The translations under genes were made by a program, and so were the position numbers. Positions 36,886 through 50,098 of a DNA stretch of 64,000 bases are shown here, piece by piece. Under the pieces are notes generated by a model. That model searched no databases and had not been told where the DNA came from. It saw nothing but the letters and a program-made list of their open reading frames with translations. Origin of the DNA: Solirubrobacter pauli (lineage in GTDB: Bacteria; Actinomycetota; Thermoleophilia; Solirubrobacterales; Solirubrobacteraceae); the NCBI RefSeq assembly GCF_003633755.1, contig NZ_RBIL01000002.1, positions 806,001 to 870,000 of the forward strand. Reading direction: 5' to 3'. Each line of letters begins with the position of its first letter. Position 1 is the first letter of the stretch.

Positions 36886-37059
36886 ATGGGCGACGGTGCC
36901 GCAGACGATGCCAAGGGCCGCGCGAAGGAAGCCGCCGGTGCGCTGACGGGCGATGACGACCTCAAGCGCGAGGGCAAGGTCGACCAGGCGACCGGCACGG
37001 TGAAGGACAAGGTCGGCGACGCGAGCGACAAGCTCAAGGACGCCGTCAACCGCGACTGA
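36886..37059 (+). CDS. CsbD-family stress protein
   Basis: A 57-residue, highly charged helical protein. It has the CsbD signature: DDAKGRAKEAAGALTGDDDL, then GKVDQATGTVKDKVGDASDK split across a repeated amphipathic pattern. CsbD-like proteins accumulate under general stress in many bacteria, but their biochemical role is not settled. GAGAAGGAG lies 5-10 nt before the ATG. A hairpin terminator follows about 9 bp after the stop. Confidence 0.88.
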   Translation: MGDGAADDAKGRAKEAAGALTGDDDLKREGKVDQATGTVKDKVGDASDKLKDAVNRD

Positions 37060-37067
37060 CGCTTGCG

Positions 37068-37097
37068 CTGCGCCGGGTGCCCCGGCTCCCGGCGCAG
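37068..37097 (+). terminator. 10-bp hairpin after csbD
   Basis: CTGCGCCGGG (37068-37077) pairs perfectly with CCCGGCGCAG (37088-37097) around a 10-nt loop. Confidence 0.6.
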
Positions 37098-37184
37098 TCA
37101 CACCCGCACCTCACGCTCGTCACACCAGGACTCGTTCGCGGGTCTATGGTCGGTAAGCCGTTGCCGGCCGGGGCGAGGGAAAGG

Positions 37185-37198
37185 GAGAGCGGGTACGA
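37185..37198 (+). repeat. 14-bp direct repeat, copy 1
   Basis: GAGAGCGGGTACGA, identical to the copy at 37554-37567 and 369 bp upstream of it. The flanking GG/AA context is also similar. Confidence 0.55.
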
Positions 37199-37553
37199 AT
37201 CGTCAACCTTTGCCCAGCACGCCCGGCCGGCGGCCGAGTGTGGCGCTTGAACTGCTGTGACCCGTTGAGTAGACGCGCCACAGCGCGTCACGACTCGACT
37301 TCGACAACGTAGCCGATCACCCCGCGATCGGGCTGCGCGTTTCGTCCTGGACGCGACGTTCGGGCTGGAAACGCACACCCCTCACGTGTCCGCGCGAATA
37401 CCCAGGACCCGGCAGTTCAAACCGGCGTGGCGCGTCGTGTTCCAGTGCGGACACTTTCAAGGTGAGACGTCGCTGAGCGGTTGACAGAACCCCGACCCGG
37501 GTGTTGGGTTCCGGCGGAGTCGCCGCGGGGGAGCCTGCGGCGGGCCCCAAGAA

Positions 37554-37567
37554 GAGAGCGGGTACGA
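37554..37567 (+). repeat. 14-bp direct repeat, copy 2, abutting the RHS start
   Basis: Ends one base before the ATG at 37569, so it includes the likely ribosome-contact region (AAGAGAG) of the RHS gene. Confidence 0.55.
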
Positions 37568-37568
37568 G

Positions 37569-40500
37569 ATGGTCGCTTCTACGGCGCGTCGGGTCGTTCG
37601 CTGGTGGCTGCCCGGATACGGGTCAGTCGACGAGAGTCCTTCCCGCGTTGCCGTGGTGGCTACCGGTTTGGTCGCCGCGTTGTGCGCGGCGGTCGCTGTA
37701 GGCCTCCCGCTCGGCTCGCTGCTCGGCGAGGCCGGCACAAGCTCCACCGCGGCCGACACGTCGGCACCGCCGTTGAGAGCATCCTCGGCGAGCGCCTTCG
37801 CGGATCTTGCTCCTTCGGCCGCGGTGACCGCGGTACAGGCGGACTTCGGAGCGGCCATGAGCGCACGGGCCACGACCGCGGCGCCGCTCGCGATCGGGCG
37901 TCCGGCGACCACCGAGGCCGGCGACGGGCGCGCGCTGCCGGTCGTCAAGAGCGCTCCGGCCACCTCGGCGGTCGCGACGGGCAAGGCGGCGCCGATCGAC
38001 CTGCGCTGGCGCGGCGGCTCGCGGGGTGGCTTCGCGCTCGCCAACCCGCCGGCCGAGGTGCGCGTCGGAGCGACCGCAACGGACGGCGCCACGTTCGTCG
38101 GCACGGGCGTCGCCTTCGCACCGCATGGCGCCGCCGACGTCCGCGGCCGGCACGTCGACGCGACCGTCTTCTTCGCCAACGTGCAGCGCGACACGGACTA
38201 CCTCGTCGCGCCGCGCGGCGGCGGCCTCGAGGCCATGTGGGCGCTGCGCAGCTCCGCGAGCCCGGAGCGGCTGGTGTTGGACTACCGGCTCGGCGCGGGG
38301 TCTTCGCTGCGCACTTCGCAGGACCCGGATCTCGCCGCGGTCGTCGTCCGCGGCGGCAAGACCGTCGCGATGACGAGCGCCGTGGTCGCGTTCGATGCGG
38401 ACCGCCGGCCCGTGCCGGTCACGACCTCGGTCGTGGGGGACCGGCTGGTGGTCGAGGTCGACCACCGTGGCCGTGACCTGCGCTACCCGCTGCTGGTCGA
38501 CCCGACGACGTACACCTGGGCGTCCGGGACGTCCAGCGAGCACTGGGCGTTCGCTTCGGTCGGCGAGTGGGGGTCCGGGCCCATCTCCACGACCCTCGAG
38601 ATCGCCACGATCAATGAGACGGCGACCGGCGACTGGGCCGAGTGGACCTACACGGCTCCAGGGACCGGATACGTCATCTCGCTCGACGGTGGCGTCGTCT
38701 CGGACTACATGCTCCCCGGCGTGTCCGACAGCTCGGTCGGGCTGCGGCGCAGCAACGGTGTGTGGGCGGTGCCGCCGGTGCAGACAGACGGCATCTACGG
38801 GGAGTACGACGCGGTGCAGGTCTGCCTGGTCTCCTCCTGCGGCGAGCCGGCCGCGGGCGACTCCCCGACCAACGCGCTGAGCTACTTCTCCGGCACGCAG
38901 GCCGTCTTCCGCGTCGATCAGCAGCAGGACAACTCCGACACCCTCAACGACGGTTGGGAGACGGGCGACGCCACGCTCGTCCTCGACGACCCCGAAGTGC
39001 CGACGCTCTCGAACGTCATCACCGGCGCGTCCGGCACGGGCACGACGCGCACGGCGTCGGCGACCGTGACCGACCCCGGGTTGGGGCCGGTCAGGCTCGA
39101 GGTGCTCAAGGACAACGTCGTCGTCAGCACCGTCAACCGCTCGTGCGTGCCCGAGGCCGGCGCCTGCACGGGCACCTGGTCGCCGTCGATCAACTACAGC
39201 CTGAGCGGCACGTCCCAGGGCTCGACCGCGACGTTCGGGCTCCGGGCCTACGACGCCGCCGGCCACGTGTCGACGACCACGTCCTGGACGGTCAACACCG
39301 ACACCGAGGCTCCGACCCTGACCCTCGGCGGTTCGGTCAACAACCCGGTGAGCGGCGGTTGGGACCTGGCCATCAGCGGCAACGACGGCTCCGGCAGCGG
39401 CGTCAAGCGCGTGCACATCAGCGTGGACGGCGTCGCCCAGACGCCGACGGTCGTGTCCTGCCCGAGCAGCTGCCCCCAGTTCTACTCGACGTCCTTCGTG
39501 CTGGATCGGCAGCTGTACTCGGAGGGCCTGCACGCGATCTCGGTGCGCCTCGAGGACGCGGTCGGCAACCTCTCGGCGCCGCAGACGCGGAACGTCTACC
39601 TGATCCACGAGGACGGCTTCGACCGCGCCCAGCTCGGCCTGGAGAACTACTTCGCGTACGAGAGCACGCCGACGGGCGCCGGCACCGCCGCGCACGTCAA
39701 CGCCGCCAACGGCAACCTCGTCTGGCACTCGACGCCGATCGTCAACCCCGGTCGGGGCCTGTCGAGCGTGGTCAACCTGACCTACAACTCGCTCGACCGT
39801 GGCGGGTACGTCAACTCGCTGATCCGCGACGGCGGCACCGCGGTCGTGGGGCAGACGACCAACCAGAGCCGTTGGCTCGGTGGGCTGGCCTACGGCGAGG
39901 TCGGCGTCGGGTTCTCGCTGGGCATCTCCGGCCTGACGCGCCTGAACGAGCCGCTGCGCCGGATCTCCGGCGGGAGCCTGGACGAGCCGCAGCTGATCAT
40001 GCTCACCGACGTCGACGGCACCGTGCACACCTTCAGCCGCGACGGCACGACGTCCCGCTACAACCCCCCGGCCGGCGTCGAGCTGGCGTTCCGCCTGCAC
40101 TCGACGAGCGACCCCGCCCGCCGGTACGCGGCCACCCGCCCGGACGGCGTGACGTTCTACTTCGACACCGACGGCTACCAGACGTTCATCACGGATCGCA
40201 ACGGCAACTCGATCCGCTTCGACTACGAGAAGTACTCCAAGGTCACGGGCAACGTCTCGGACTGCAACGGCAGCCCGTCCGCGAACCTGCTGTGCAGCAA
40301 GCGCGTGATCCGCGTGGTGGACGCGTACGGCGTCCAGCACGGCGGCGCCGAGGTCGACAAGCGCTCGATCAAGATCACCTACAAGTCCGGCCCGGTGCTC
40401 CCGATCGGCTCCCTCACGCCCGACGCCGTCGCGCTCACCGGCTCGGTCGGCGGGCGCCCGGACAAGATCGCGCGGATCGTCGACCACGCCGGCCGCGTGA

Positions 40501-43500
40501 CCGACTTCGGCTACGACGGCAACGGCTACCTGACGACGCTCACCCAGGGCGAGGTGCTCAACCCGGGCGGCCCGTCGAACACCGACCACGTCCGCACCAC
40601 CACCTTCACCTACGCGGGCAGCGGCGTGAACCGCCAGCTGGCGAGCGTGGTCGACCCCCGCGGCCACGACACGACGTTCAACTACGAGACCGCGGCCGCC
40701 CCGGGCCCGACCGGCGTCAAGAGCTTCGGCCAGCGCGCGCTCGGCGCGACCAACCGCCGCGACAACGCGACCACGTTCGCCTATGGCACCAACACCTTCA
40801 CCGCGACCGCACCGGGCGCGGTGGACACCACGTACCTGACCGACTCGGTCGGCCGCGTCCAGGAGATCACGGACGAGCTGGGCACGCTCACCGAGCTCGA
40901 CTGGTCCAACGACAACTACATGACGCGGTACAAGACCGCGGCCAACTTCTCCGCCCAGGCGGCTGAGACGGAGATCACCTACACCCGCCTCGGCGACCCG
41001 CTGACGATCACCGACCCGCTGGACCGCGTCACGACGCTCTCCTACCGCTTCGGCACGGAGGCGGGACCGACGAACGGCGGCCTCGACGACGGCACCCAGT
41101 ACGTCACCGACCTCACGTCGATGCGCCGCCCGGCTCGCGGGAACATCGCGCTCTTCCCGGCGCCGACCGTGACGTTCGGCCTCGACAACGCCGGCAACGT
41201 CACCAGCCGCACCTACGCCGGCCTGGCCCCGGCCGAGACCAACTACGGCAGCTACGGCCTCGTCAACTGGGAAGAGGACGAGCACGACAACCGCACGAGC
41301 TACTCGAGCCACGACGCCAACGGCGATCCGACCGTCGTCGTCGATGCGCGCCAGAACGCGGGCGAGAGCGGCTACGACGGCACCTGGCGCTACAGCTACG
41401 ACCCGGTGGGCAACCTCCTGGCGGTCACCGACCCGCGCGGCGGGACGTCGGCCACGCCGGGGGAGCCCTACACCACCTCCTTCGTCTATGACCCGTTCGA
41501 CCGCGTCGTCGAGTCGTGGACGCCGAAGTGCACCGGTCCTCTCGCAACACCGCAGAACCCAGGAGGCTGCCAGTCCGAGCAGTGGATCCAGCGCTTGACG
41601 GAGTACGACCCCAACGGCAATCCCACGCAGAGCACGGACGGAGAAGACGAGCAGACCGACCGGGAGTTCTCGGCGATGGACGCCGTGACGGTCGAGCTGG
41701 CGCCGGCCGTCAACCACTACGGCGAGCAGGACCCGGCGCGCGAGAAGACGACGTACGACTACGACGCGCGAGAGAACATCACGCTGGTGACGTCGCCTGA
41801 GGGCAACCAGTCCGAGGGGGTCGCCGGCGACCACGCCACCGCCTACGAGTACGACCTCATCGACCGCCTCGTGGTCGAGCAGCGCCAGGAGCGCGGTAGC
41901 GCGACGAGCAACCTGATCACGTCGTACGCCTACGACCGGCGGGACAACGTCATCGGCGTGAGCGATCCGCTGTTGAACAAGAGCGGCGACCCGAAGGCGA
42001 ACGCCGCGACGAGCAGCAAGCAGCGCTGGGCGTACGCCTACGACCTCGCCGACAACCGCGTCGACGCGACGGAGAACCCTGACGGCAGCGGCGGTGTCCC
42101 CGCGCTGCGTACGCACACGACGTACGACGCGAACGACAACGTCCAGACGATGGTGTCCCCGCGCGGGATGACGGTCAGTGGCCCGAACGCCAGCGCGGCG
42201 CTCTTCACGACGAGCTATGTGCACGACGTCCACGACGACGTGATCTCGATGACCCGCGGCGGCCAGCGGACGACCGCGTACGCCCGCCGTGACGACGGTC
42301 AGATCACGGCCATAACGTCGCCGCGAGGCGTGGCCAGCACGACTGTCGTCGGGGATTTCCAGACCCAGTACACCTACGACGCCAACGGCGATGTCGCCAG
42401 CGTCACCCTGCCGCGCGCACCGGGGCAGGTCCCCAGCCGGGCCGCGAAGATCAAGTACGGCCGCAACGCCGTCGGCGATCCCGTCGACGTCAAGGACCCG
42501 CGCGGCAACGACGAGGGCGGTGCGCCCGCTCCGCCTGAGCACTACTTCTCCAACCGGTTCTACGACACGGGCGAGCTCCGCTGGACGGACCGGCCGTCCT
42601 GGTGGACGGTGGAGCTCGGGGCGGCGATGGAGGTGCGCGAGCGCACCCCGGACGAGTGGATCCTGTTCGACGGCAGCCAGCCGGCGCTCCCGACGGGGCC
42701 GGGCGACTTCGGCAAGGTGACCGGGATGCCGCTCCCGGAGTTGCTGCCGAGGTCCGGCGGCACGGACGTCCGCTACGACGAGGAAATGCGGCTCGAGAGC
42801 GTGGTCGACGTCGCGGGCAAGGTGGTCGACCTCCAACGTGACGCGCTCGGACGCGTCAAGGCCGTCGAATACCCGTACAAGGCTGACAACGCGCAGACGC
42901 CGGCGAACGACCCGGTCCGCATCACGAACCGGCTCGGCTACGACCGCAACGGAAACCTCGTGATGACCGAGGACGGCGAGGAGCACCGGACGGTCACGCA
43001 GTTCGACCAGTTCGACCGCTGGATTCAGCGCACAGCGCCCGGCGCGGCGCCCGACGGCGGAGCGCCCACGGGCTCGGGCCCCAGCACGTTCGAGGACGAG
43101 GTGACCGAGGCCACCTGGGACGAGAACGGCAACCAGACCACGTACGAGAACGCTCGGCACAAGACCACTTCGAGGACCTACGACCCGGTCGACCGCCTCC
43201 AGAGCGCGACCGATCCCCTGGGCCACGTCACCACCTACGGCTACGACGCGGACGGCAACGAGACGTGCGTGCGGACGCCACGGGGCAACACCTCCATCTC
43301 GCGCGATTGCGCGGCCGGCGACTTCGCGACGACGTCCGCATACAACGAGTTCGACGAGCTCGCGACGGTCACCCAGCAGGCCGACTACACGGGCGAGAGC
43401 GATCAGGTCATCACCACCACCTACGCGTACGACCTGGATGGCAACCAGATCACGGTGACCGCGCCGGGGGCCCGTCGCGGACCCGACGGCGACATCCGCG

Positions 43501-46500
43501 CGCAGATCACCGAACGTCGCTTCGACGGCGCCGGCCGGCCGTGGATCACGATCCAGGGCACCAAGTCGACGGTCGGCGAGTCGTTCGACGATCGCAGCGT
43601 CACGATCACCGAGTACGACCTGGCCGGAAACCTCCGCCGCGTCGTCAACCCGAAGGGCGCGCCGGACCCGGACGACATCGACCTCAACAACCCGGCGGTC
43701 GCGCTCGCCCAGCTGACGACCGACAACGGGGCGGAGATCCCGCCGACCGGCAACAACCCGCCCGGCACGTCCGCGAACTACCACGCCACGATCTTCAGCG
43801 TCGACGAGGACAACCTCCTCATCCGGACGTGGCTCCCGGTCGGTGGCCGTGACAGCGATGACGGCGAGCGCTGGCGCCAGCTGTTCAAGCGTGACGAGCG
43901 CGGTCGCGTCGAGTACATCGACGCCCCGTACAAGGACTCCACCGCCAAGCGGGCCCGCACCGGCTACTTCTACTACGACAACGGCTGGATCCGGGAGTCC
44001 AGCGACGAGCACGTCGTCAACCCCGCCGACACCACGTCCGTCAAGGACGGCGCGTTCACGTACGAGTACGACAAACGCGGCAGCCAGACCAGGTGGGACG
44101 CGTCCGGCCCGCGCAGCGTCGAACGCGCCTACTACCCGAACGGCCTGCTGCTGCGGCGCGTGGCTACGGGCGACGACACGGGTCCGCGGCGGTACAGCTA
44201 CGGCTACAACGCGAACCGCGACGTCGTCCGCATCCGCGACACCAACGCCCATCGCGAGACCCACACGACCTACGACGACGCCGATCGGCGCCTCGAGGTC
44301 AACCAGATCGACGATTCCGCCGGAGACGACTGGGAGGTCGACAAGGACACCAAGTACAGCTACGACGACGACGGCAACATCCTCACGCGCCGTACCGACG
44401 GCAACATCTCAGGCAGCAGCTACTCCGGTGGCAAGCTCGCCACCTTCGAGTACGACTCGCTCGGCCGCGAGCGCAAAGTCACGATCGACACCGACGGGCA
44501 GGCCGACCGCATCACCCGCACGACGTGGTGGGCGTCCGGCCGCAAGGCGAACGTGATCCGTCAGAACGGCGAGGTCTGCCAGCGCACGTACTTCGACACG
44601 CAGGGCCGGGTCACCGCTCGCGGGCGCACCACGAACGCCGACGAGCGCGGCTGCGAGCACGTCGAGACGCGCTACCGGCACTACGAGTACGACACCAACG
44701 GCAACCGCATCGACGAGTACCGCTGGAACACCGGCAACACCACCAAGGAGCACTACAACCGCCACGAGTACAACTCGCGGGACCAGCTCGTGTGGTGGAA
44801 GCGGGGTGTGGACGCCCGCCCGGTCGACGGCGAGAACCTCGAGAACTCGACCGTCAAGTACAAGCTCAACGGCGCGGGAGCCATCCTCGAGCAGCTCGAC
44901 GAGCGCGAGGACGACCACACGATCGAGACCAAGTTCGACGTCACGGCGTTCCGGATGACGTCGGCGACGGTCGAGGACTCCAAGACCAACCCCGACGATC
45001 CCGAGACGCGGTACGTCAAGTACGACGCCGCCGGCAACATGGGGTGCCTCGGCACGACCGACGACAGCGCGCCGAACGACGTCAGCACGTGCCCCGGCGG
45101 CGATCGCTACAAGTACGACGGCTTCAGCCGCCTGTCGTCCACGGATACGCCGGGGACGGACAAGCAGTACCGCTACGACGGCCTCGACCGCCGTGAGCAG
45201 GAATGCTCGCTGAGCGGTTCCGCCTGCGCCGCCGGCACTCAGCTGGACTACAGCTTCGTCGGCCTGGGCGAAGAGCTGTCCTGGACGCGCGAGCCGGGCG
45301 CGAGCTCCGGCAAGGTCCAGAGCTTCGACTACGACTCCGACTTCGGCCGGATCGGGCAAGCGACCGACAGCAACACCGACCACAGCTACCACAGCTACTT
45401 CACCGACCCGGCGAACGGCACGGTGATCGGCCTCGAGGACACGACGGGCGCGATCGGCACGAACGACCGCTACGACCTCGACCCGTACGGCAAGCAGGAG
45501 AACAAGGACACGCCGAGCGCGGAGGCGGGGGAGAACCCCTTCCGCTTCCAGAGCCATTACTTCGACTCGGGCCTGCAGGCCTACGACATGCAGGCGCGCT
45601 CGTACCTGCCCAACATCGGGCGCTTCCTGACCGCGGATCGCTTCGAGGATGCGCTCGGGGACTTCGCCCTGCAGTCGGACCCGTTGACGCAGGAGCGCTA
45701 CGCGTTCGGCGCCGGCAACCCGGTCAATCGCGTCGAGTTCGACGGTCACGGCCCCGGGAGCGAGGGCGGCGCACAGCCGATCATCCAGTCCAAGGACGGC
45801 ACCACCCAGCGCAAGCGCGAGGGCTGGTCGGAGACGCCCGAGCAGCAAGCGGCGCGTCACGACACGTTCAACGGACAGAGCGCGGCCGACGCGTACAACA
45901 AGAACCAGGCCAACGCGGGAGCGCAAGCCGCGGGCGGCGCCGCTGCGGCAGCCCAGCCGAAGGCCACCCCGCAACCTGAGGCCAACTGCGACCACGGCAT
46001 CGGCTGCCGCGGGCCGATCATCTACTCCCGTGAGCGCCAGCGCGAGCTTGCCGAGGGCCGCAAGGCCTTCATCGAAGGCGTGAAGTTCGTCGTCGGCGAC
46101 AACCCGGTCGAGATCGCCAGCAACTTCGCCGGTGGGCCGCTCGGCCGCGTCGTCGGCAAAGTCGGCGGGAAGGTCGTCATGAAGTACGGCGACGACGTCT
46201 GGGATGCAGGGAGCAAGGCCTTCAGCAAGAGCGACGAGGCCGTCGACGCCAACCGGGCCCGCAAGCGGTCGGACCAGGTCTCGGACTGCGCCATGTCGTT
46301 CGGAGCCGCCACGCCGGTCCTCATGGCCGACGGCACGCTTCGGGCGATCTCGGAGGTGCAGGTCGGAGACTGGGTCACTGCTACGGACCCGGTCACGGGT
46401 CAGCAAAGCCCGCGCCAGGTGCTCGCTGTGTGGCGTCACGACGACACCCTGGTCAACCTCACGATCGGCGGCGAAGCGCTCGTGACGACGGAGGACCACC

Positions 46501-47033
46501 CCTTCTGGAACCAGTCCGACCTCGAGTGGCAGGACGCGGCGGATCTGGTCTCCGGGGACTCGGCGCTGACCGCCGACGGCGGAACCGTCGCCGTGGGCGG
46601 CCTCGATCCGGCGTCGCTGCGCCAGGGGCGCGCCTACAACCTCACGGTCGAAGGCGTCCACACGTACCACGTGGGAACCGCCTCGGTGCTGGTCCACAAC
46701 GCCAACCAGTGCCGCGTGGTGCCCAACTTCAACGAAGGCATCTACGTCGTCACCAAGGCTGGGGGACCGAACAAGGGCAAGCAGTACGTCGGGCAGTCTG
46801 GAAACATCAGCCGGCGCATGCGCCAGCACGTCCGCGCGGGCAAGTTCACGCAGGCCGAAGCCAACGCCGCGGCACGGATCCCGGTTCCCGGCGGCAAGAC
46901 CAAGCGCGAAGTCGCGGAGCAGAAGCTGATCGATACGCTTGGCGGCTTGAAGGGCGGCAACCTGTTGAACAAGGTCAATCCCGTCGGCGACAAGCGCATC
47001 GGGAGCCTGATGCCTCCGGGGTACACCCGGTGA
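37569..47033 (+). CDS. Exported RHS/YD-repeat polymorphic toxin with HINT and GIY-YIG domains
   Basis: A 3154-residue contact-type toxin. The N-terminus has a hydrophobic export or anchor segment (about 27-50). Ig-like domains follow (about 470-680), then some 1900 residues of YD repeats (YDANGN, YDPVDRLQ, YDALGR-like) that build the RHS shell. The RHS core motif (ARSYLPNIGRFLTADRF ... GNPVNRVEFDGHG) lies near 2690-2730. A HINT autoprocessing domain runs from Cys2907 (CAMSFGAATPVLMADG) to Asn3044 (VLVHN). The last 110 residues are a GIY-YIG nuclease-like toxin: GIYVV at 3057, QYVGQSGNISRRMRQH, then the Glu in REVAEQKLI and Asn in LLNKVNP. HINT probably frees the nuclease. The stop overlaps the next gene by 4 bp. 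Confidence 0.93.
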   Translation: MVASTARRVVRWWLPGYGSVDESPSRVAVVATGLVAALCAAVAVGLPLGSLLGEAGTSSTAADTSAPPLRASSASAFADLAPSAAVTAVQADFGAAMSARATTAAPLAIGRPATTEAGDGRALPVVKSAPATSAVATGKAAPIDLRWRGGSRGGFALANPPAEVRVGATATDGATFVGTGVAFAPHGAADVRGRHVDATVFFANVQRDTDYLVAPRGGGLEAMWALRSSASPERLVLDYRLGAGSSLRTSQDPDLAAVVVRGGKTVAMTSAVVAFDADRRPVPVTTSVVGDRLVVEVDHRGRDLRYPLLVDPTTYTWASGTSSEHWAFASVGEWGSGPISTTLEIATINETATGDWAEWTYTAPGTGYVISLDGGVVSDYMLPGVSDSSVGLRRSNGVWAVPPVQTDGIYGEYDAVQVCLVSSCGEPAAGDSPTNALSYFSGTQAVFRVDQQQDNSDTLNDGWETGDATLVLDDPEVPTLSNVITGASGTGTTRTASATVTDPGLGPVRLEVLKDNVVVSTVNRSCVPEAGACTGTWSPSINYSLSGTSQGSTATFGLRAYDAAGHVSTTTSWTVNTDTEAPTLTLGGSVNNPVSGGWDLAISGNDGSGSGVKRVHISVDGVAQTPTVVSCPSSCPQFYSTSFVLDRQLYSEGLHAISVRLEDAVGNLSAPQTRNVYLIHEDGFDRAQLGLENYFAYESTPTGAGTAAHVNAANGNLVWHSTPIVNPGRGLSSVVNLTYNSLDRGGYVNSLIRDGGTAVVGQTTNQSRWLGGLAYGEVGVGFSLGISGLTRLNEPLRRISGGSLDEPQLIMLTDVDGTVHTFSRDGTTSRYNPPAGVELAFRLHSTSDPARRYAATRPDGVTFYFDTDGYQTFITDRNGNSIRFDYEKYSKVTGNVSDCNGSPSANLLCSKRVIRVVDAYGVQHGGAEVDKRSIKITYKSGPVLPIGSLTPDAVALTGSVGGRPDKIARIVDHAGRVTDFGYDGNGYLTTLTQGEVLNPGGPSNTDHVRTTTFTYAGSGVNRQLASVVDPRGHDTTFNYETAAAPGPTGVKSFGQRALGATNRRDNATTFAYGTNTFTATAPGAVDTTYLTDSVGRVQEITDELGTLTELDWSNDNYMTRYKTAANFSAQAAETEITYTRLGDPLTITDPLDRVTTLSYRFGTEAGPTNGGLDDGTQYVTDLTSMRRPARGNIALFPAPTVTFGLDNAGNVTSRTYAGLAPAETNYGSYGLVNWEEDEHDNRTSYSSHDANGDPTVVVDARQNAGESGYDGTWRYSYDPVGNLLAVTDPRGGTSATPGEPYTTSFVYDPFDRVVESWTPKCTGPLATPQNPGGCQSEQWIQRLTEYDPNGNPTQSTDGEDEQTDREFSAMDAVTVELAPAVNHYGEQDPAREKTTYDYDARENITLVTSPEGNQSEGVAGDHATAYEYDLIDRLVVEQRQERGSATSNLITSYAYDRRDNVIGVSDPLLNKSGDPKANAATSSKQRWAYAYDLADNRVDATENPDGSGGVPALRTHTTYDANDNVQTMVSPRGMTVSGPNASAALFTTSYVHDVHDDVISMTRGGQRTTAYARRDDGQITAITSPRGVASTTVVGDFQTQYTYDANGDVASVTLPRAPGQVPSRAAKIKYGRNAVGDPVDVKDPRGNDEGGAPAPPEHYFSNRFYDTGELRWTDRPSWWTVELGAAMEVRERTPDEWILFDGSQPALPTGPGDFGKVTGMPLPELLPRSGGTDVRYDEEMRLESVVDVAGKVVDLQRDALGRVKAVEYPYKADNAQTPANDPVRITNRLGYDRNGNLVMTEDGEEHRTVTQFDQFDRWIQRTAPGAAPDGGAPTGSGPSTFEDEVTEATWDENGNQTTYENARHKTTSRTYDPVDRLQSATDPLGHVTTYGYDADGNETCVRTPRGNTSISRDCAAGDFATTSAYNEFDELATVTQQADYTGESDQVITTTYAYDLDGNQITVTAPGARRGPDGDIRAQITERRFDGAGRPWITIQGTKSTVGESFDDRSVTITEYDLAGNLRRVVNPKGAPDPDDIDLNNPAVALAQLTTDNGAEIPPTGNNPPGTSANYHATIFSVDEDNLLIRTWLPVGGRDSDDGERWRQLFKRDERGRVEYIDAPYKDSTAKRARTGYFYYDNGWIRESSDEHVVNPADTTSVKDGAFTYEYDKRGSQTRWDASGPRSVERAYYPNGLLLRRVATGDDTGPRRYSYGYNANRDVVRIRDTNAHRETHTTYDDADRRLEVNQIDDSAGDDWEVDKDTKYSYDDDGNILTRRTDGNISGSSYSGGKLATFEYDSLGRERKVTIDTDGQADRITRTTWWASGRKANVIRQNGEVCQRTYFDTQGRVTARGRTTNADERGCEHVETRYRHYEYDTNGNRIDEYRWNTGNTTKEHYNRHEYNSRDQLVWWKRGVDARPVDGENLENSTVKYKLNGAGAILEQLDEREDDHTIETKFDVTAFRMTSATVEDSKTNPDDPETRYVKYDAAGNMGCLGTTDDSAPNDVSTCPGGDRYKYDGFSRLSSTDTPGTDKQYRYDGLDRREQECSLSGSACAAGTQLDYSFVGLGEELSWTREPGASSGKVQSFDYDSDFGRIGQATDSNTDHSYHSYFTDPANGTVIGLEDTTGAIGTNDRYDLDPYGKQENKDTPSAEAGENPFRFQSHYFDSGLQAYDMQARSYLPNIGRFLTADRFEDALGDFALQSDPLTQERYAFGAGNPVNRVEFDGHGPGSEGGAQPIIQSKDGTTQRKREGWSETPEQQAARHDTFNGQSAADAYNKNQANAGAQAAGGAAAAAQPKATPQPEANCDHGIGCRGPIIYSRERQRELAEGRKAFIEGVKFVVGDNPVEIASNFAGGPLGRVVGKVGGKVVMKYGDDVWDAGSKAFSKSDEAVDANRARKRSDQVSDCAMSFGAATPVLMADGTLRAISEVQVGDWVTATDPVTGQQSPRQVLAVWRHDDTLVNLTIGGEALVTTEDHPFWNQSDLEWQDAADLVSGDSALTADGGTVAVGGLDPASLRQGRAYNLTVEGVHTYHVGTASVLVHNANQCRVVPNFNEGIYVVTKAGGPNKGKQYVGQSGNISRRMRQHVRAGKFTQAEANAAARIPVPGGKTKREVAEQKLIDTLGGLKGGNLLNKVNPVGDKRIGSLMPPGYTR

Positions 47034-47917
47034 CGTTCAGCCTCGACAGCTCCTCCGCCGGTCCGTACGTCGTGGAGGATCGGGACCAGGGACCGACGTT
47101 GGTGGTCACCAGCCGCTGGAGCGCAGCGGCTGGGGCGGCCCTCGAGGACCCGGCGGTCGACGGTCTGGAGCTCAACTACGCCCGCGGATACGCGGCCGAG
47201 GACCTGAGCTTCCTATCGGATGACCTGGGCATCCGACGCCTTCAGGTGCTCGACCGCACCCTCACCGACCTGACACCGGTCGCCGAGATGCGGTCGCTCA
47301 CGGAGCTGCGGGTGGACTCCGCCCCTGGGACGAAGCTCGACGTGAGCGCGCTCGCTTCCCTGCGCCTGCTCGCAGCGGACTGGGAGCAGGTCGAAGGGCT
47401 GGACGGTCCCGAGCAGCTGCAGGAGCTGGTGCTCGCGGGCTATGACGCCGATGACCTGATGCCCCTGTCGAACGTCCGGGGGCTGCGGGTGCTGGAACTG
47501 CTCGGCCGCCCCAAGTTGCGGTCGGTGGCGGGGGTCGAGCAGCAACGGGACCTCACGTCGCTGAAGATGGCGAACGCGCGCCAGCTCGACGACTTCGAAC
47601 CACTCGGCGCGCTCGACGGGCTGCGGCAGATCCTGTTCGAGTCGGTTCCGGGCCTCGACCGCATCGACTACGTGCGATCGCATCCGCACCTTCGCGATCT
47701 CGGGTTCAGCGACTGCGGTTCGATCGCTTCGCTGAAGCCCCTGCAAGGGCTGGGCGAGCTGGAGTACATCGGCGCTTCAGGCTCGACGCGGATCGAGGAC
47801 GGGGACCTCTCCCCGTTGCTCCAGCTCCCAAATCTGCGGTATCTCGAGATGCAGAACCGTCGAACGTACGACCCGGCCGTCAAGGACGTGCAGCGGGCGC
47901 TCGAAGCGCGAGCGTGA
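47030..47917 (+). CDS. Leucine-rich-repeat protein, candidate immunity protein
   Basis: A 295-residue cytosolic protein built of degenerate leucine-rich repeats of about 22 residues (IRRLQVLDRTLTDLTPVAEM, SLTELRVDSAPGTKLDVSAL, LQELVLAGYDADDLMPLSNV). It starts at a GTG overlapping the RHS stop by 4 bp, the classic position of the cognate immunity gene in polymorphic toxin loci. It most likely binds and blocks the GIY-YIG nuclease. No signal peptide is present, which fits immunity to a cytoplasmic nuclease. Confidence 0.78.
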   Translation: MTFSLDSSSAGPYVVEDRDQGPTLVVTSRWSAAAGAALEDPAVDGLELNYARGYAAEDLSFLSDDLGIRRLQVLDRTLTDLTPVAEMRSLTELRVDSAPGTKLDVSALASLRLLAADWEQVEGLDGPEQLQELVLAGYDADDLMPLSNVRGLRVLELLGRPKLRSVAGVEQQRDLTSLKMANARQLDDFEPLGALDGLRQILFESVPGLDRIDYVRSHPHLRDLGFSDCGSIASLKPLQGLGELEYIGASGSTRIEDGDLSPLLQLPNLRYLEMQNRRTYDPAVKDVQRALEARA

Positions 47918-47921
47918 GGCC

Positions 47922-48380
47922 ATGCCGCTGACCGCCGCCGAGCTGCTGCGCGCGTGCTCCGAACGTGCGCCGGGCCTGGTGTCCGTGATCGGGGCGCCCC
48001 CACCGGGGGCGCCCTCTGCGGCAGAGCAGGCACTGCAGCTTCGCTTCGCGGACGAGTACCGGGCCTTCCTCGAGCAGTTCGGAGCCGCCGAGGTGGGGAC
48101 CTGCCGGATCTACGGCATCGACCTCTCCAGCGAGGCGGAGACCCTCAGCGTCGTGGCGCACACGCTCCAGGCACGAGCTGCGGGCCGGATCGGGCCCGAC
48201 GAGCTCGTGCTCGCGTCCTGGGACGATCTGACGCTCGAAGTGCAGACGGTCACCGGTGACCGGGACGGTCCGGTCCGGGAGGTGTCGCTCGACGGCTCTG
48301 GCGAGCTCTTGGGTGCGACGTTCGTCGATTGGCTCGAGTACGTCGTGCGCGAGGAGCTCGACCTCGACGAGGGCACCTGA
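47922..48380 (+). CDS. SUKH (SMI1/KNR4)-like protein, second candidate immunity protein
   Basis: A 152-residue alpha/beta protein with SUKH-like features: RFADEYRAFLEQFGAAEVGTCRIYGIDL split near the middle, an acidic C-terminus and the closing FVDWLEYVVREEL. SUKH proteins are among the commonest immunity proteins in contact-dependent toxin loci. It lies 4 bp after the LRR gene and is probably in the same operon. Whether it covers the same toxin or an unrelated one is unknown. Confidence 0.75.
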   Translation: MPLTAAELLRACSERAPGLVSVIGAPPPGAPSAAEQALQLRFADEYRAFLEQFGAAEVGTCRIYGIDLSSEAETLSVVAHTLQARAAGRIGPDELVLASWDDLTLEVQTVTGDRDGPVREVSLDGSGELLGATFVDWLEYVVREELDLDEGT

Positions 48381-48403
48381 GCTGACGAGGCCGCGGCCGG
48401 GCG

Positions 48404-50098
48404 TCAGACCGTGACCGCGCCGGCGCCCGCGCGCCGGCGCACCACGGCCAGGAGCGCGTCGGCCACAGCCGGGTCGAAGTGCGTCCCGCGCAGGCGCTCG
48501 ACCTCCTCGCACGCGCGCTCGACGCTCCAGGCCTCCTTGTAGGGGCGCTCGTGGGTGAGCGCGTCGAAGACGTCGCAGACCGCCGCGATCCGGCCTTCCA
48601 GCGGGATCGCGTCGCCGGCCAGGCCATTCGGGTAGCCGGTGCCGTCCCAGCGCTCGTGGTGGGTGTCGACGATGATCTGGGCGATCTGCAGGACGGGGGA
48701 GGGTGAGCCGTCGAGCAGCAGTGCGCCCTCGATGACGTGCCGGCGCATCGTCGTCATCTCGTCGTCGGTCAGGCGGGCGGGCTTGCGCAGGATCTCGTCG
48801 GGCACCCCGATCTTGCCGACGTCGTGCAGGACCGCCGCGTAGCGGATCGTCTCGGCGCGGGTGGGTGGCAGGCCGAGCTCGAGCGCGACCTCGCCGCACA
48901 TGCGGCTCATCCGGTCGATGTGCTCGCCGGTGTCGTCGTCGTGGAGCTCGGCGGCGCGCGCCAGGCGGGCGACCACCTCCAGCTGGGTGGCCGCCAGGTC
49001 CTTCGTGCGCGCGTGGACGGCGGCCTCCAGCTCGGCGTTGTACCGGCTCACCCGCGCGCGGGCGGAGCGCTCGGCGACGGCGCGCACGAGCAGCGAGACC
49101 GCCAGCGTCAGGGCGAGCGCCACCAGTGGCACGGCGACCGTGAGCACCGTCCCGGCGCTGAACGCGAGCTGCGCGGCGACGGCGTACAGCAGCCCGGCGC
49201 CGACGGCGACCGCGCTGCCGCGCAGCGGGCCGAGGAAGCGCACGGCCACGGCGGCGACCGCGGCGAGCGCGACCGCGAGCACGAACGCCACCCAGCCGGG
49301 GATCGCGCGCAGCGGGTTGCCGTGCAGCGCGGTCCAGATCGCGTTCGCCTGGATCTCGGCGCCCGGCATCTGGCGGCCGCCCGGCGCGGACGTCGGGTGC
49401 ACGTCCTGCAGCGCGGGGGCGGTCGCGCCGACGACGACGATCTTGCCGCGCAGCGCTGACGCGTCCCCTTCGAGCACGTCCGCGAACGAGTACGTCGGGA
49501 TCGTGCCGGTCGGCCCGCGGAAGTCGATCAGCGCGCGCTCGTCGCGCACGGGCGCGCCGAGCCGCTCGCCGACGAGCGCGGGGATGGTCGGCAGCCGCGT
49601 GTCCTCGCGCGCGTAGCGGCGGATCGCGCCGCCGGGGTCGGTCGGGAACGTGCTCGCGGCGGCGCGGGCGCCACCGGCCCGCGCCAGGTTCTCGTCGCCG
49701 CCGAGGACGCGCGTGCGCCCGTCGTCGTCGACTTCCCCGGTGGCGAGGATCACGCGCTGGGCGCGGCCGATCGCGTCGTAGAGCGCGAGGTCCTCGTCGG
49801 GATCCTCGGACGGCTCGGTGAACTGGACGTCGTAGACGATCTGGCGGGCACCGGCCTCGCGCAGGCGGTCGACCATGCGCGCGTGCAGCGAGCGCGGGAA
49901 CGGCCACTGCTCGTCGAGCTCGGTGAACGAGCGCTCGTCGATCCCGACGACCACGAGGCCGGACACCGGCTGCGTGCCGCGGACGCCGAAGCGCATGTCG
50001 ATCGTCGTCGTCTCCGCGCGTTCGAGCGCCGGCGTGAGCGCGGCGACGAGGGCGACCACCGCGACGAGGGCGCCCGCGACCTTGGCGAGCCGGGTCAT
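48404..50098 (-). CDS. CHASE2-domain membrane protein with HD-GYP c-di-GMP phosphodiesterase domain
   Basis: A 564-residue protein with an N-terminal membrane helix (about 4-24), an extracellular CHASE2 sensor domain (about 25-250, with VVGIDERSFTELDEQWPFPR and IVYDVQF), three more membrane helices (about 255-345), a short linker and an HD-GYP domain (about 365-560). The latter has the HD pair in VLHDVGKIGVPDEI and HHERWDGTGYPNGL, plus DVFDALTHERPYK. HD-GYP domains hydrolyse c-di-GMP. CHASE2 usually pairs with an adenylate cyclase or kinase; an HD-GYP output is less common. The ATG at 50098 overlaps the stop of the FecR-like gene by 4 bp, so the two are coupled. Confidence 0.92.
   Translation of the reverse strand: MTRLAKVAGALVAVVALVAALTPALERAETTTIDMRFGVRGTQPVSGLVVVGIDERSFTELDEQWPFPRSLHARMVDRLREAGARQIVYDVQFTEPSEDPDEDLALYDAIGRAQRVILATGEVDDDGRTRVLGGDENLARAGGARAAASTFPTDPGGAIRRYAREDTRLPTIPALVGERLGAPVRDERALIDFRGPTGTIPTYSFADVLEGDASALRGKIVVVGATAPALQDVHPTSAPGGRQMPGAEIQANAIWTALHGNPLRAIPGWVAFVLAVALAAVAAVAVRFLGPLRGSAVAVGAGLLYAVAAQLAFSAGTVLTVAVPLVALALTLAVSLLVRAVAERSARARVSRYNAELEAAVHARTKDLAATQLEVVARLARAAELHDDDTGEHIDRMSRMCGEVALELGLPPTRAETIRYAAVLHDVGKIGVPDEILRKPARLTDDEMTTMRRHVIEGALLLDGSPSPVLQIAQIIVDTHHERWDGTGYPNGLAGDAIPLEGRIAAVCDVFDALTHERPYKEAWSVERACEEVERLRGTHFDPAVADALLAVVRRRAGAGAVTV

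What the first reader, a model, noticed from the sequence alone, without database searches (positions are those of the whole stretch)
37569..48380. RHS-HINT-GIY-YIG polymorphic toxin with two adjacent candidate immunity genes
The RHS protein combines an RHS core motif and a HINT domain, two possible processing sites, before a 110-residue GIY-YIG nuclease tip. The downstream genes are an LRR protein (4-bp overlap) and a SUKH-like protein (4 bp gap). LRR immunity to GIY-YIG toxins is not one I can recall as described. Two different immunity folds in one operon suggests either double protection or a displaced older toxin tip.
Basis: partly seen in the sequence, partly recalled or inferred. Interest (0 to 1): 0.75.

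Follow-up and report, generated by a model that had tools for sequence, protein, structure and literature searches.

The report
Nuclease toxin with leucine-rich-repeat immunity partner
A soil bacterium carries a giant secreted toxin whose DNA-cutting tip is followed by a leucine-rich-repeat protein that most likely protects the producer; the same tip-protector pair turns up in several distantly related bacterial phyla, whereas a second candidate protector gene is found only here.

Summary
Window 37569-48380 (a Solirubrobacter genome) encodes a 3154-residue RHS protein with RHS core, HINT domain and a 110-residue GIY-YIG tip. It is followed by an LRR gene (4-bp overlap) and a SUKH_5 gene (4-bp gap). 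The tip has all GIY-YIG catalytic positions, folds like the I-TevI nuclease domain and matches the published Tox-URI1 class.

The LRR is very probably the cognate immunity protein. Scanning 84,980 species genomes for the tip returned 14 relatives: 9 have a homologous LRR gene directly 3', 1 a divergent LRR, 2 DUF5076, 2 an RraB-like gene. In the whole family (146 genomes) both genomes with the tip have the LRR beside it; of four LRR copies, two adjoin intact tips, one a decayed tip, one is an orphan. Toxin and LRR divergences correlate.

Compared with a congener, DNA homology stops right after the HINT C-terminal Asn codon and resumes 34 bp after SUKH: tip+LRR+SUKH is one exchanged block. SUKH was found with no other GIY-YIG tip; its role is open.

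GIY-YIG RHS toxins and LRR immunity as classes are published (2012); this specific pairing is not in the tables I read. No biochemistry exists.

The parts
37569..47033 (+). RHS polymorphic toxin, 3154 aa: hydrophobic N-terminal segment consistent with export, RHS repeats, RHS core, PT-HINT, GIY-YIG tip
45480..45749 (+). RHS-associated core (aa 2638-2727), ending EFDGHG instead of DPxG
   Evidence: motif positions
46296..46700 (+). PT-HINT self-processing domain (about aa 2910-3044): Ser at position 1, TTEDHPFW, C-terminal VHN
46701..47030 (+). 110-residue GIY-YIG (Tox-URI1-type) nuclease tip, aa 3045-3154
47030..47917 (+). LRR protein, 295 aa, GTG start with 4-bp overlap: proposed cognate immunity protein
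47922..48380 (+). SUKH_5 protein, 152 aa: second immunity-type gene, partner unknown
46702..48413 (+). exchanged block: DNA homology to congener G658 stops at 46701 and resumes at 48414

Best explanation
This is a secreted RHS polymorphic toxin used against competing bacteria. The RHS shell carries a C-terminal GIY-YIG endonuclease which the HINT domain probably releases by cleavage after Asn3044; inside a target cell it would cut DNA. The overlapping downstream gene makes an LRR solenoid that binds and blocks the nuclease in the producer and its kin, in the same general way as the mammalian ribonuclease inhibitor (an LRR protein) blocks RNase A. The SUKH gene behind it is a separate immunity-type gene carried in the same block, more likely against another toxin than a duplicate lock on this one. 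Shown: the architecture, catalytic residues, predicted nuclease fold, recurrent tip-LRR linkage over several phyla, and sequence exchange at the HINT boundary. Inferred: secretion, HINT cleavage, DNA as target, direct binding by the LRR, and any role for SUKH.
For: Domains and catalytic residues. The tip model (mean pLDDT 91.5) matches the I-TevI catalytic domain, Z 8.6 over 78 residues. Scanning genome contigs with the two tips gave 14 relatives; 9 have a homologous LRR directly 3', mostly overlapping by 4-8 bp, in Actinomycetota, Planctomycetota, Bacteroidota and a Legionellaceae MAG. Family-wide and unconditioned: tip in 2 of 146 genomes, both beside the LRR; LRR in 4 genomes, 2 with intact tip, 1 with a decayed tip, 1 orphan. 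Pairwise divergences of 9 tip-LRR pairs correlate, r 0.71, permutation p 0.005. Orthologous RHS-HINT proteins in congeners carry different tips and different immunity candidates, with the homology break right after the HINT Asn codon. In the window the tip is strongly basic (+11.8) and the LRR acidic (-18).
Against: No binding, toxicity or rescue data. Two relatives have only DUF5076 and two only an RraB-like gene, so the LRR is not the sole partner of this tip class. The charge complementarity of the window pair is not seen in most other pairs. The correlation test uses 9 pairs that fall into two main groups. The scan that found the pairs was seeded with two tips that both have the LRR. Several relatives are MAG contigs.
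Confidence: 0.83

Rival explanations
1. Double protection: LRR and SUKH both neutralise this GIY-YIG tip, for example at different sites.
For: Tight spacing of both genes; SUKH proteins act on many nuclease toxins (PMC3482391); three relatives also have a second immunity-type gene, DUF5076, behind the LRR, and DUF5076 alone follows two other tips.
Against: The SUKH gene was found beside no other GIY-YIG tip. LRR alone follows the tip in L031, L032, L033, L037 and L043, so one protector appears to suffice.
Confidence: 0.25
2. The SUKH gene is a left-over immunity gene of an earlier tip at this locus, or an acquired orphan one, kept because it still protects against kin or rivals armed with another tip.
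For: The locus exchanges tips: congeners carry unrelated tips on the orthologous RHS-HINT, and SUKH lies inside the exchanged block. LRR homologues on Bacillota plasmids also stand near SUKH genes without a GIY-YIG toxin.
Against: No remnant of an older tip lies between the LRR and SUKH genes (4-bp gap). No SUKH_5 gene follows the tips of the congeners.
Confidence: 0.45
3. SUKH is the true immunity protein and the LRR protein serves another role, such as chaperone or delivery adaptor of the tip.
For: SUKH is the better documented immunity fold (PMC3482391).
Against: The LRR recurs with the tip across phyla without SUKH, including beside an RHS protein lacking HINT (L033), and persists where the tip has decayed (L029) or is absent (L030), as expected of immunity rather than delivery.
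Confidence: 0.05
4. Chance adjacency of a common LRR protein.
For: LRR proteins are widespread in bacteria.
Against: Relatives of this LRR are rare (4 of 146 family genomes; in a 396-genome phylum sample only partial matches besides the window's own) yet sit directly 3' of the tip in 9 of 14 loci.
Confidence: 0.02

Closest known systems
Tox-URI1 polymorphic toxins (Zhang et al. 2012, PMC3482391)
   Same: GIY-YIG/URI nuclease at the C-terminus of RHS proteins, HINT sometimes present, Y/YxG/R/E/N motif set, actinobacterial members
   Different: Listed immunity partners are Imm14, Imm26, Imm44 and Imm51 (and Imm54 for Tox-URI); no LRR is listed for this toxin
Imm-LRR (Zhang et al. 2012, PMC3482391)
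   Same: LRR protein encoded beside polymorphic toxins or in polyimmunity loci
   Different: Described there only as next to T5SS toxins and in polyimmunity loci, with no toxin type assigned
TepC/TipC of Yersinia pseudotuberculosis (PMC10833071)
   Same: A DNase effector with a neighbouring immunity gene, linked by its Imm26 partner to Tox-URI1 toxins
   Different: Delivered by T6SS; immunity protein is Imm26, not LRR
LRR protein listed as 'Nuclease immunity' in a Stenotrophomonas rhizophila T6SS study (PMC13340143)
   Same: LRR protein proposed as immunity; the study's Rhs region also holds SUKH, Imm26 and LRR genes
   Different: Prediction only; toxin type not given as GIY-YIG in the passages read
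Mammalian ribonuclease inhibitor (own knowledge)
   Same: LRR solenoid that inactivates a nuclease by binding it
   Different: Eukaryotic, larger, acts on RNase A-type enzymes; only an analogy, no homology tested

Membership tests
RHS polymorphic toxin | RHS repeats and RHS-associated core followed by a variable C-terminal toxin | tested here: met
   variable tips on orthologous RHS genes in congeners
RHS polymorphic toxin | Immunity-type gene immediately downstream | tested here: met
   LRR gene overlaps by 4 bp and recurs with the tip
RHS polymorphic toxin | Secretion and killing of neighbouring cells | not testable with these tools
   Hydrophobic N-terminal segment seen only
Tox-URI1 | GIY-YIG motif set Y, YxG, R, E, N | tested here: met
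   GIY, YVG, Arg, Glu, Asn conserved in 15 aligned tips apart from one truncated tip; spacing of the [RK]xxE motif was not checked against the published alignment
Tox-URI1 | GIY-YIG fold | tested here: met
   Model pLDDT 91.5, I-TevI Z 8.6; Foldseek E-values weak
Tox-URI1 | DNase activity | not testable with these tools
   No biochemistry
Imm-LRR | LRR solenoid encoded beside a polymorphic toxin | tested here: met
   LRR families over cut-off; model pLDDT 91.8 matches internalins and SDS22
Imm-LRR | Neutralises the adjacent toxin | not testable with these tools
   Genetic linkage only
SUKH superfamily immunity | SUKH domain | tested here: met
   PF14567 8.7e-9, over cut-off
SUKH superfamily immunity | Recurrent linkage of this SUKH to the GIY-YIG tip | tested here: not met
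   No homologue beside any other GIY-YIG tip found
PT-HINT | Position-1 nucleophile, TxxH, C-terminal His-Asn | tested here: met
   Ser rather than Cys at position 1, TTEDH, VHN; shared by three orthologues

The most novel reading that the evidence does not exclude
A distinct LRR immunity family, spread over at least four phyla, is dedicated to one subgroup of GIY-YIG (Tox-URI1) toxins and inhibits the nuclease by wrapping it in an LRR solenoid, a bacterial counterpart to the ribonuclease inhibitor; unrelated proteins (DUF5076, RraB-like, possibly SUKH) serve as alternative or additional protectors against the same toxin subgroup.
Probability: 0.5. Interest if true: 0.62.

Novelty: new variant of a known kind. 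Interest (0 to 1): 0.5.

Why it matters
It would assign a specific toxin to LRR immunity proteins, which the 2012 survey listed without a toxin type, and give a bacterial case of nuclease inhibition by an LRR solenoid. It also shows a tip block exchanged precisely at a HINT cleavage site, and unrelated immunity candidates beside one toxin subgroup, which makes the question of how immunity proteins are replaced directly testable.

Tried and rejected
Tip in plasmids and viral contigs: nothing. LRR alignment in viral contigs: nothing. SUKH in plasmids: nothing. LRR hits in the phylum sample other than the window's own were partial matches and looked like generic LRR repeats (one locus read). LRR homologues on Bacillota plasmids have no GIY-YIG gene upstream and look like orphan immunity genes. 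Weak tip matches in the class sample were mostly not toxins; one (L013/L024) is an RHS protein with a GIY-YIG tip followed by a 176-aa ORF with no Pfam match. L045 and L046 from the genome scan were set aside as not tips of this kind. PDB sequence search with the tip gave nothing meaningful. Rfam: no match in 30000-56000. A toxin-LRR complex could not be modelled with the tools given.

Full report
What is there. The window lies in a Solirubrobacter genome: the same-genus genome G660 is Solirubrobacter soli DSM 22325, as the matching contig length and locus of L033 show. ORF 37569-47033 encodes a 3154-residue RHS protein with RHS repeats, an RHS core (aa 2638-2727), a PT-HINT domain (aa 2919-3045) and a GIY-YIG match (aa 3057-3123). 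GIY-YIG is below Pfam's cut-off in the full protein and above it for the tip alone. The LRR gene (47030-47917, GTG start) overlaps the toxin stop by 4 bp, and the SUKH_5 gene (47922-48380) starts 4 bp after the LRR stop.

The tip. It begins after the HINT C-terminal Asn (VHN|A, aa 3044|3045) and is 110 residues long. In an alignment of 15 tips the GIY/YVG tyrosines, the Arg, the Glu and the Asn are conserved apart from one truncated tip. The predicted structure (mean pLDDT 91.5) matches the I-TevI catalytic domain, Z 8.6 over 78 residues, with UvrC GIY-YIG domains further down. The Foldseek E-values themselves were weak (best 0.077). The motif set is that of Tox-URI1 in the 2012 survey (PMC3482391).

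The LRR partner. In the whole genus a P0002 relative was found in S. soli directly 3' of another RHS GIY-YIG tip, with a 4-bp overlap and no SUKH behind it. A scan of 84,980 species genomes seeded with the two tips returned 16 loci, of which 14 are tips of this kind. Nine have a homologous LRR gene directly 3': Nostocoides, Subtercola (two contigs), S. soli, a Tatlockia MAG, three Planctomycetota MAGs and Spirosoma. One Caldilineales MAG has a divergent LRR 194 bp away. Two have DUF5076 only and two an RraB-like gene. In three loci DUF5076 follows the LRR. The LRRs align along their length with conserved C-terminal motifs, and the window's LRR is predicted with high confidence as a solenoid.

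Unconditioned checks. The seeded scan could favour LRR-paired tips, so the whole family (146 genomes) was searched with each partner on its own. The tip occurs in 2 genomes, both beside the LRR. The LRR occurs in 4: two with intact tips, one (L029) behind a decayed tip fragment, one (L030) as an orphan beside a tRNA-Ser gene. In a 396-genome phylum sample the other LRR hits were partial. Divergences of nine tip-LRR pairs correlate, r 0.71, permutation p 0.005. The tip tree places the window tip with Nostocoides and Subtercola rather than with S. soli, as expected of an exchanged cassette.

The cassette. Orthologous RHS-HINT proteins in congeners G658 and G232/G657 carry unrelated tips, each with one downstream immunity candidate and no LRR or SUKH. 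DNA homology between the window and G658 runs from 36998 to 46701 and resumes at 48414; the G232 match also ends at 46701. The break falls right after the HINT Asn codon, so tip, LRR and SUKH lie in one exchanged block. HINT has Ser instead of Cys at position 1 in all three orthologues, with TxxH and the C-terminal His-Asn kept. The second RHS-core motif reads EFDGHG; whether the core self-cleaves is open.

The SUKH gene. Within the genus SUKH_5 was found only here; family-wide and on plasmids there were only weak matches or none. It was beside no other GIY-YIG tip. It may be a left-over immunity gene, a gene against another toxin, or a second lock on this one; the data do not decide.

Novelty. 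LRR as an immunity class and GIY-YIG RHS toxins are published. The survey lists Imm14, 26, 44 and 51 for Tox-URI1 and places LRR next to T5SS toxins without a toxin type. A 2026 study lists an LRR protein as nuclease immunity in Stenotrophomonas (PMC13340143). Searches of the open-access library found no report of this pairing; most subscription papers were not searchable.

Noticed in passing
L035, L039, L041 (behind LRR) and L038, L040 (directly 3' of the tip): DUF5076 (PF16826) genes of about 95 aa beside GIY-YIG tips, alone or behind the LRR: a candidate immunity family. A PDB relative, 3ic3, is labelled putative pyruvate dehydrogenase.
   Followed up: partly
L034 5275-5631; L042 5314-5673: RraB-like (PF06877) genes directly 3' of GIY-YIG tips: another candidate immunity family.
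   Followed up: partly
L076 9727-10354; L077 10917-11650: Orthologous RHS-HINT genes of congeners carry tips and immunity candidates without confident Pfam or NCBIfam matches.
   Followed up: partly
L030 8439-9408: Orphan LRR homologue beside a tRNA-Ser(GGA) gene.
   Followed up: partly
L055, L057: LRR homologues on Priestia plasmids near SMI1/KNR4 (SUKH) genes, without a GIY-YIG toxin upstream.
   Followed up: partly
L026 (G000:C1:218000-236000): A second RHS gene in the same genome (2100-residue frame) whose tail shows no recognisable nuclease tip.
   Followed up: no
window 37187-37200 and 37553-37567: The stretch gagagcgggtacga occurs twice upstream of the RHS start; no Rfam match in the region.
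   Followed up: no
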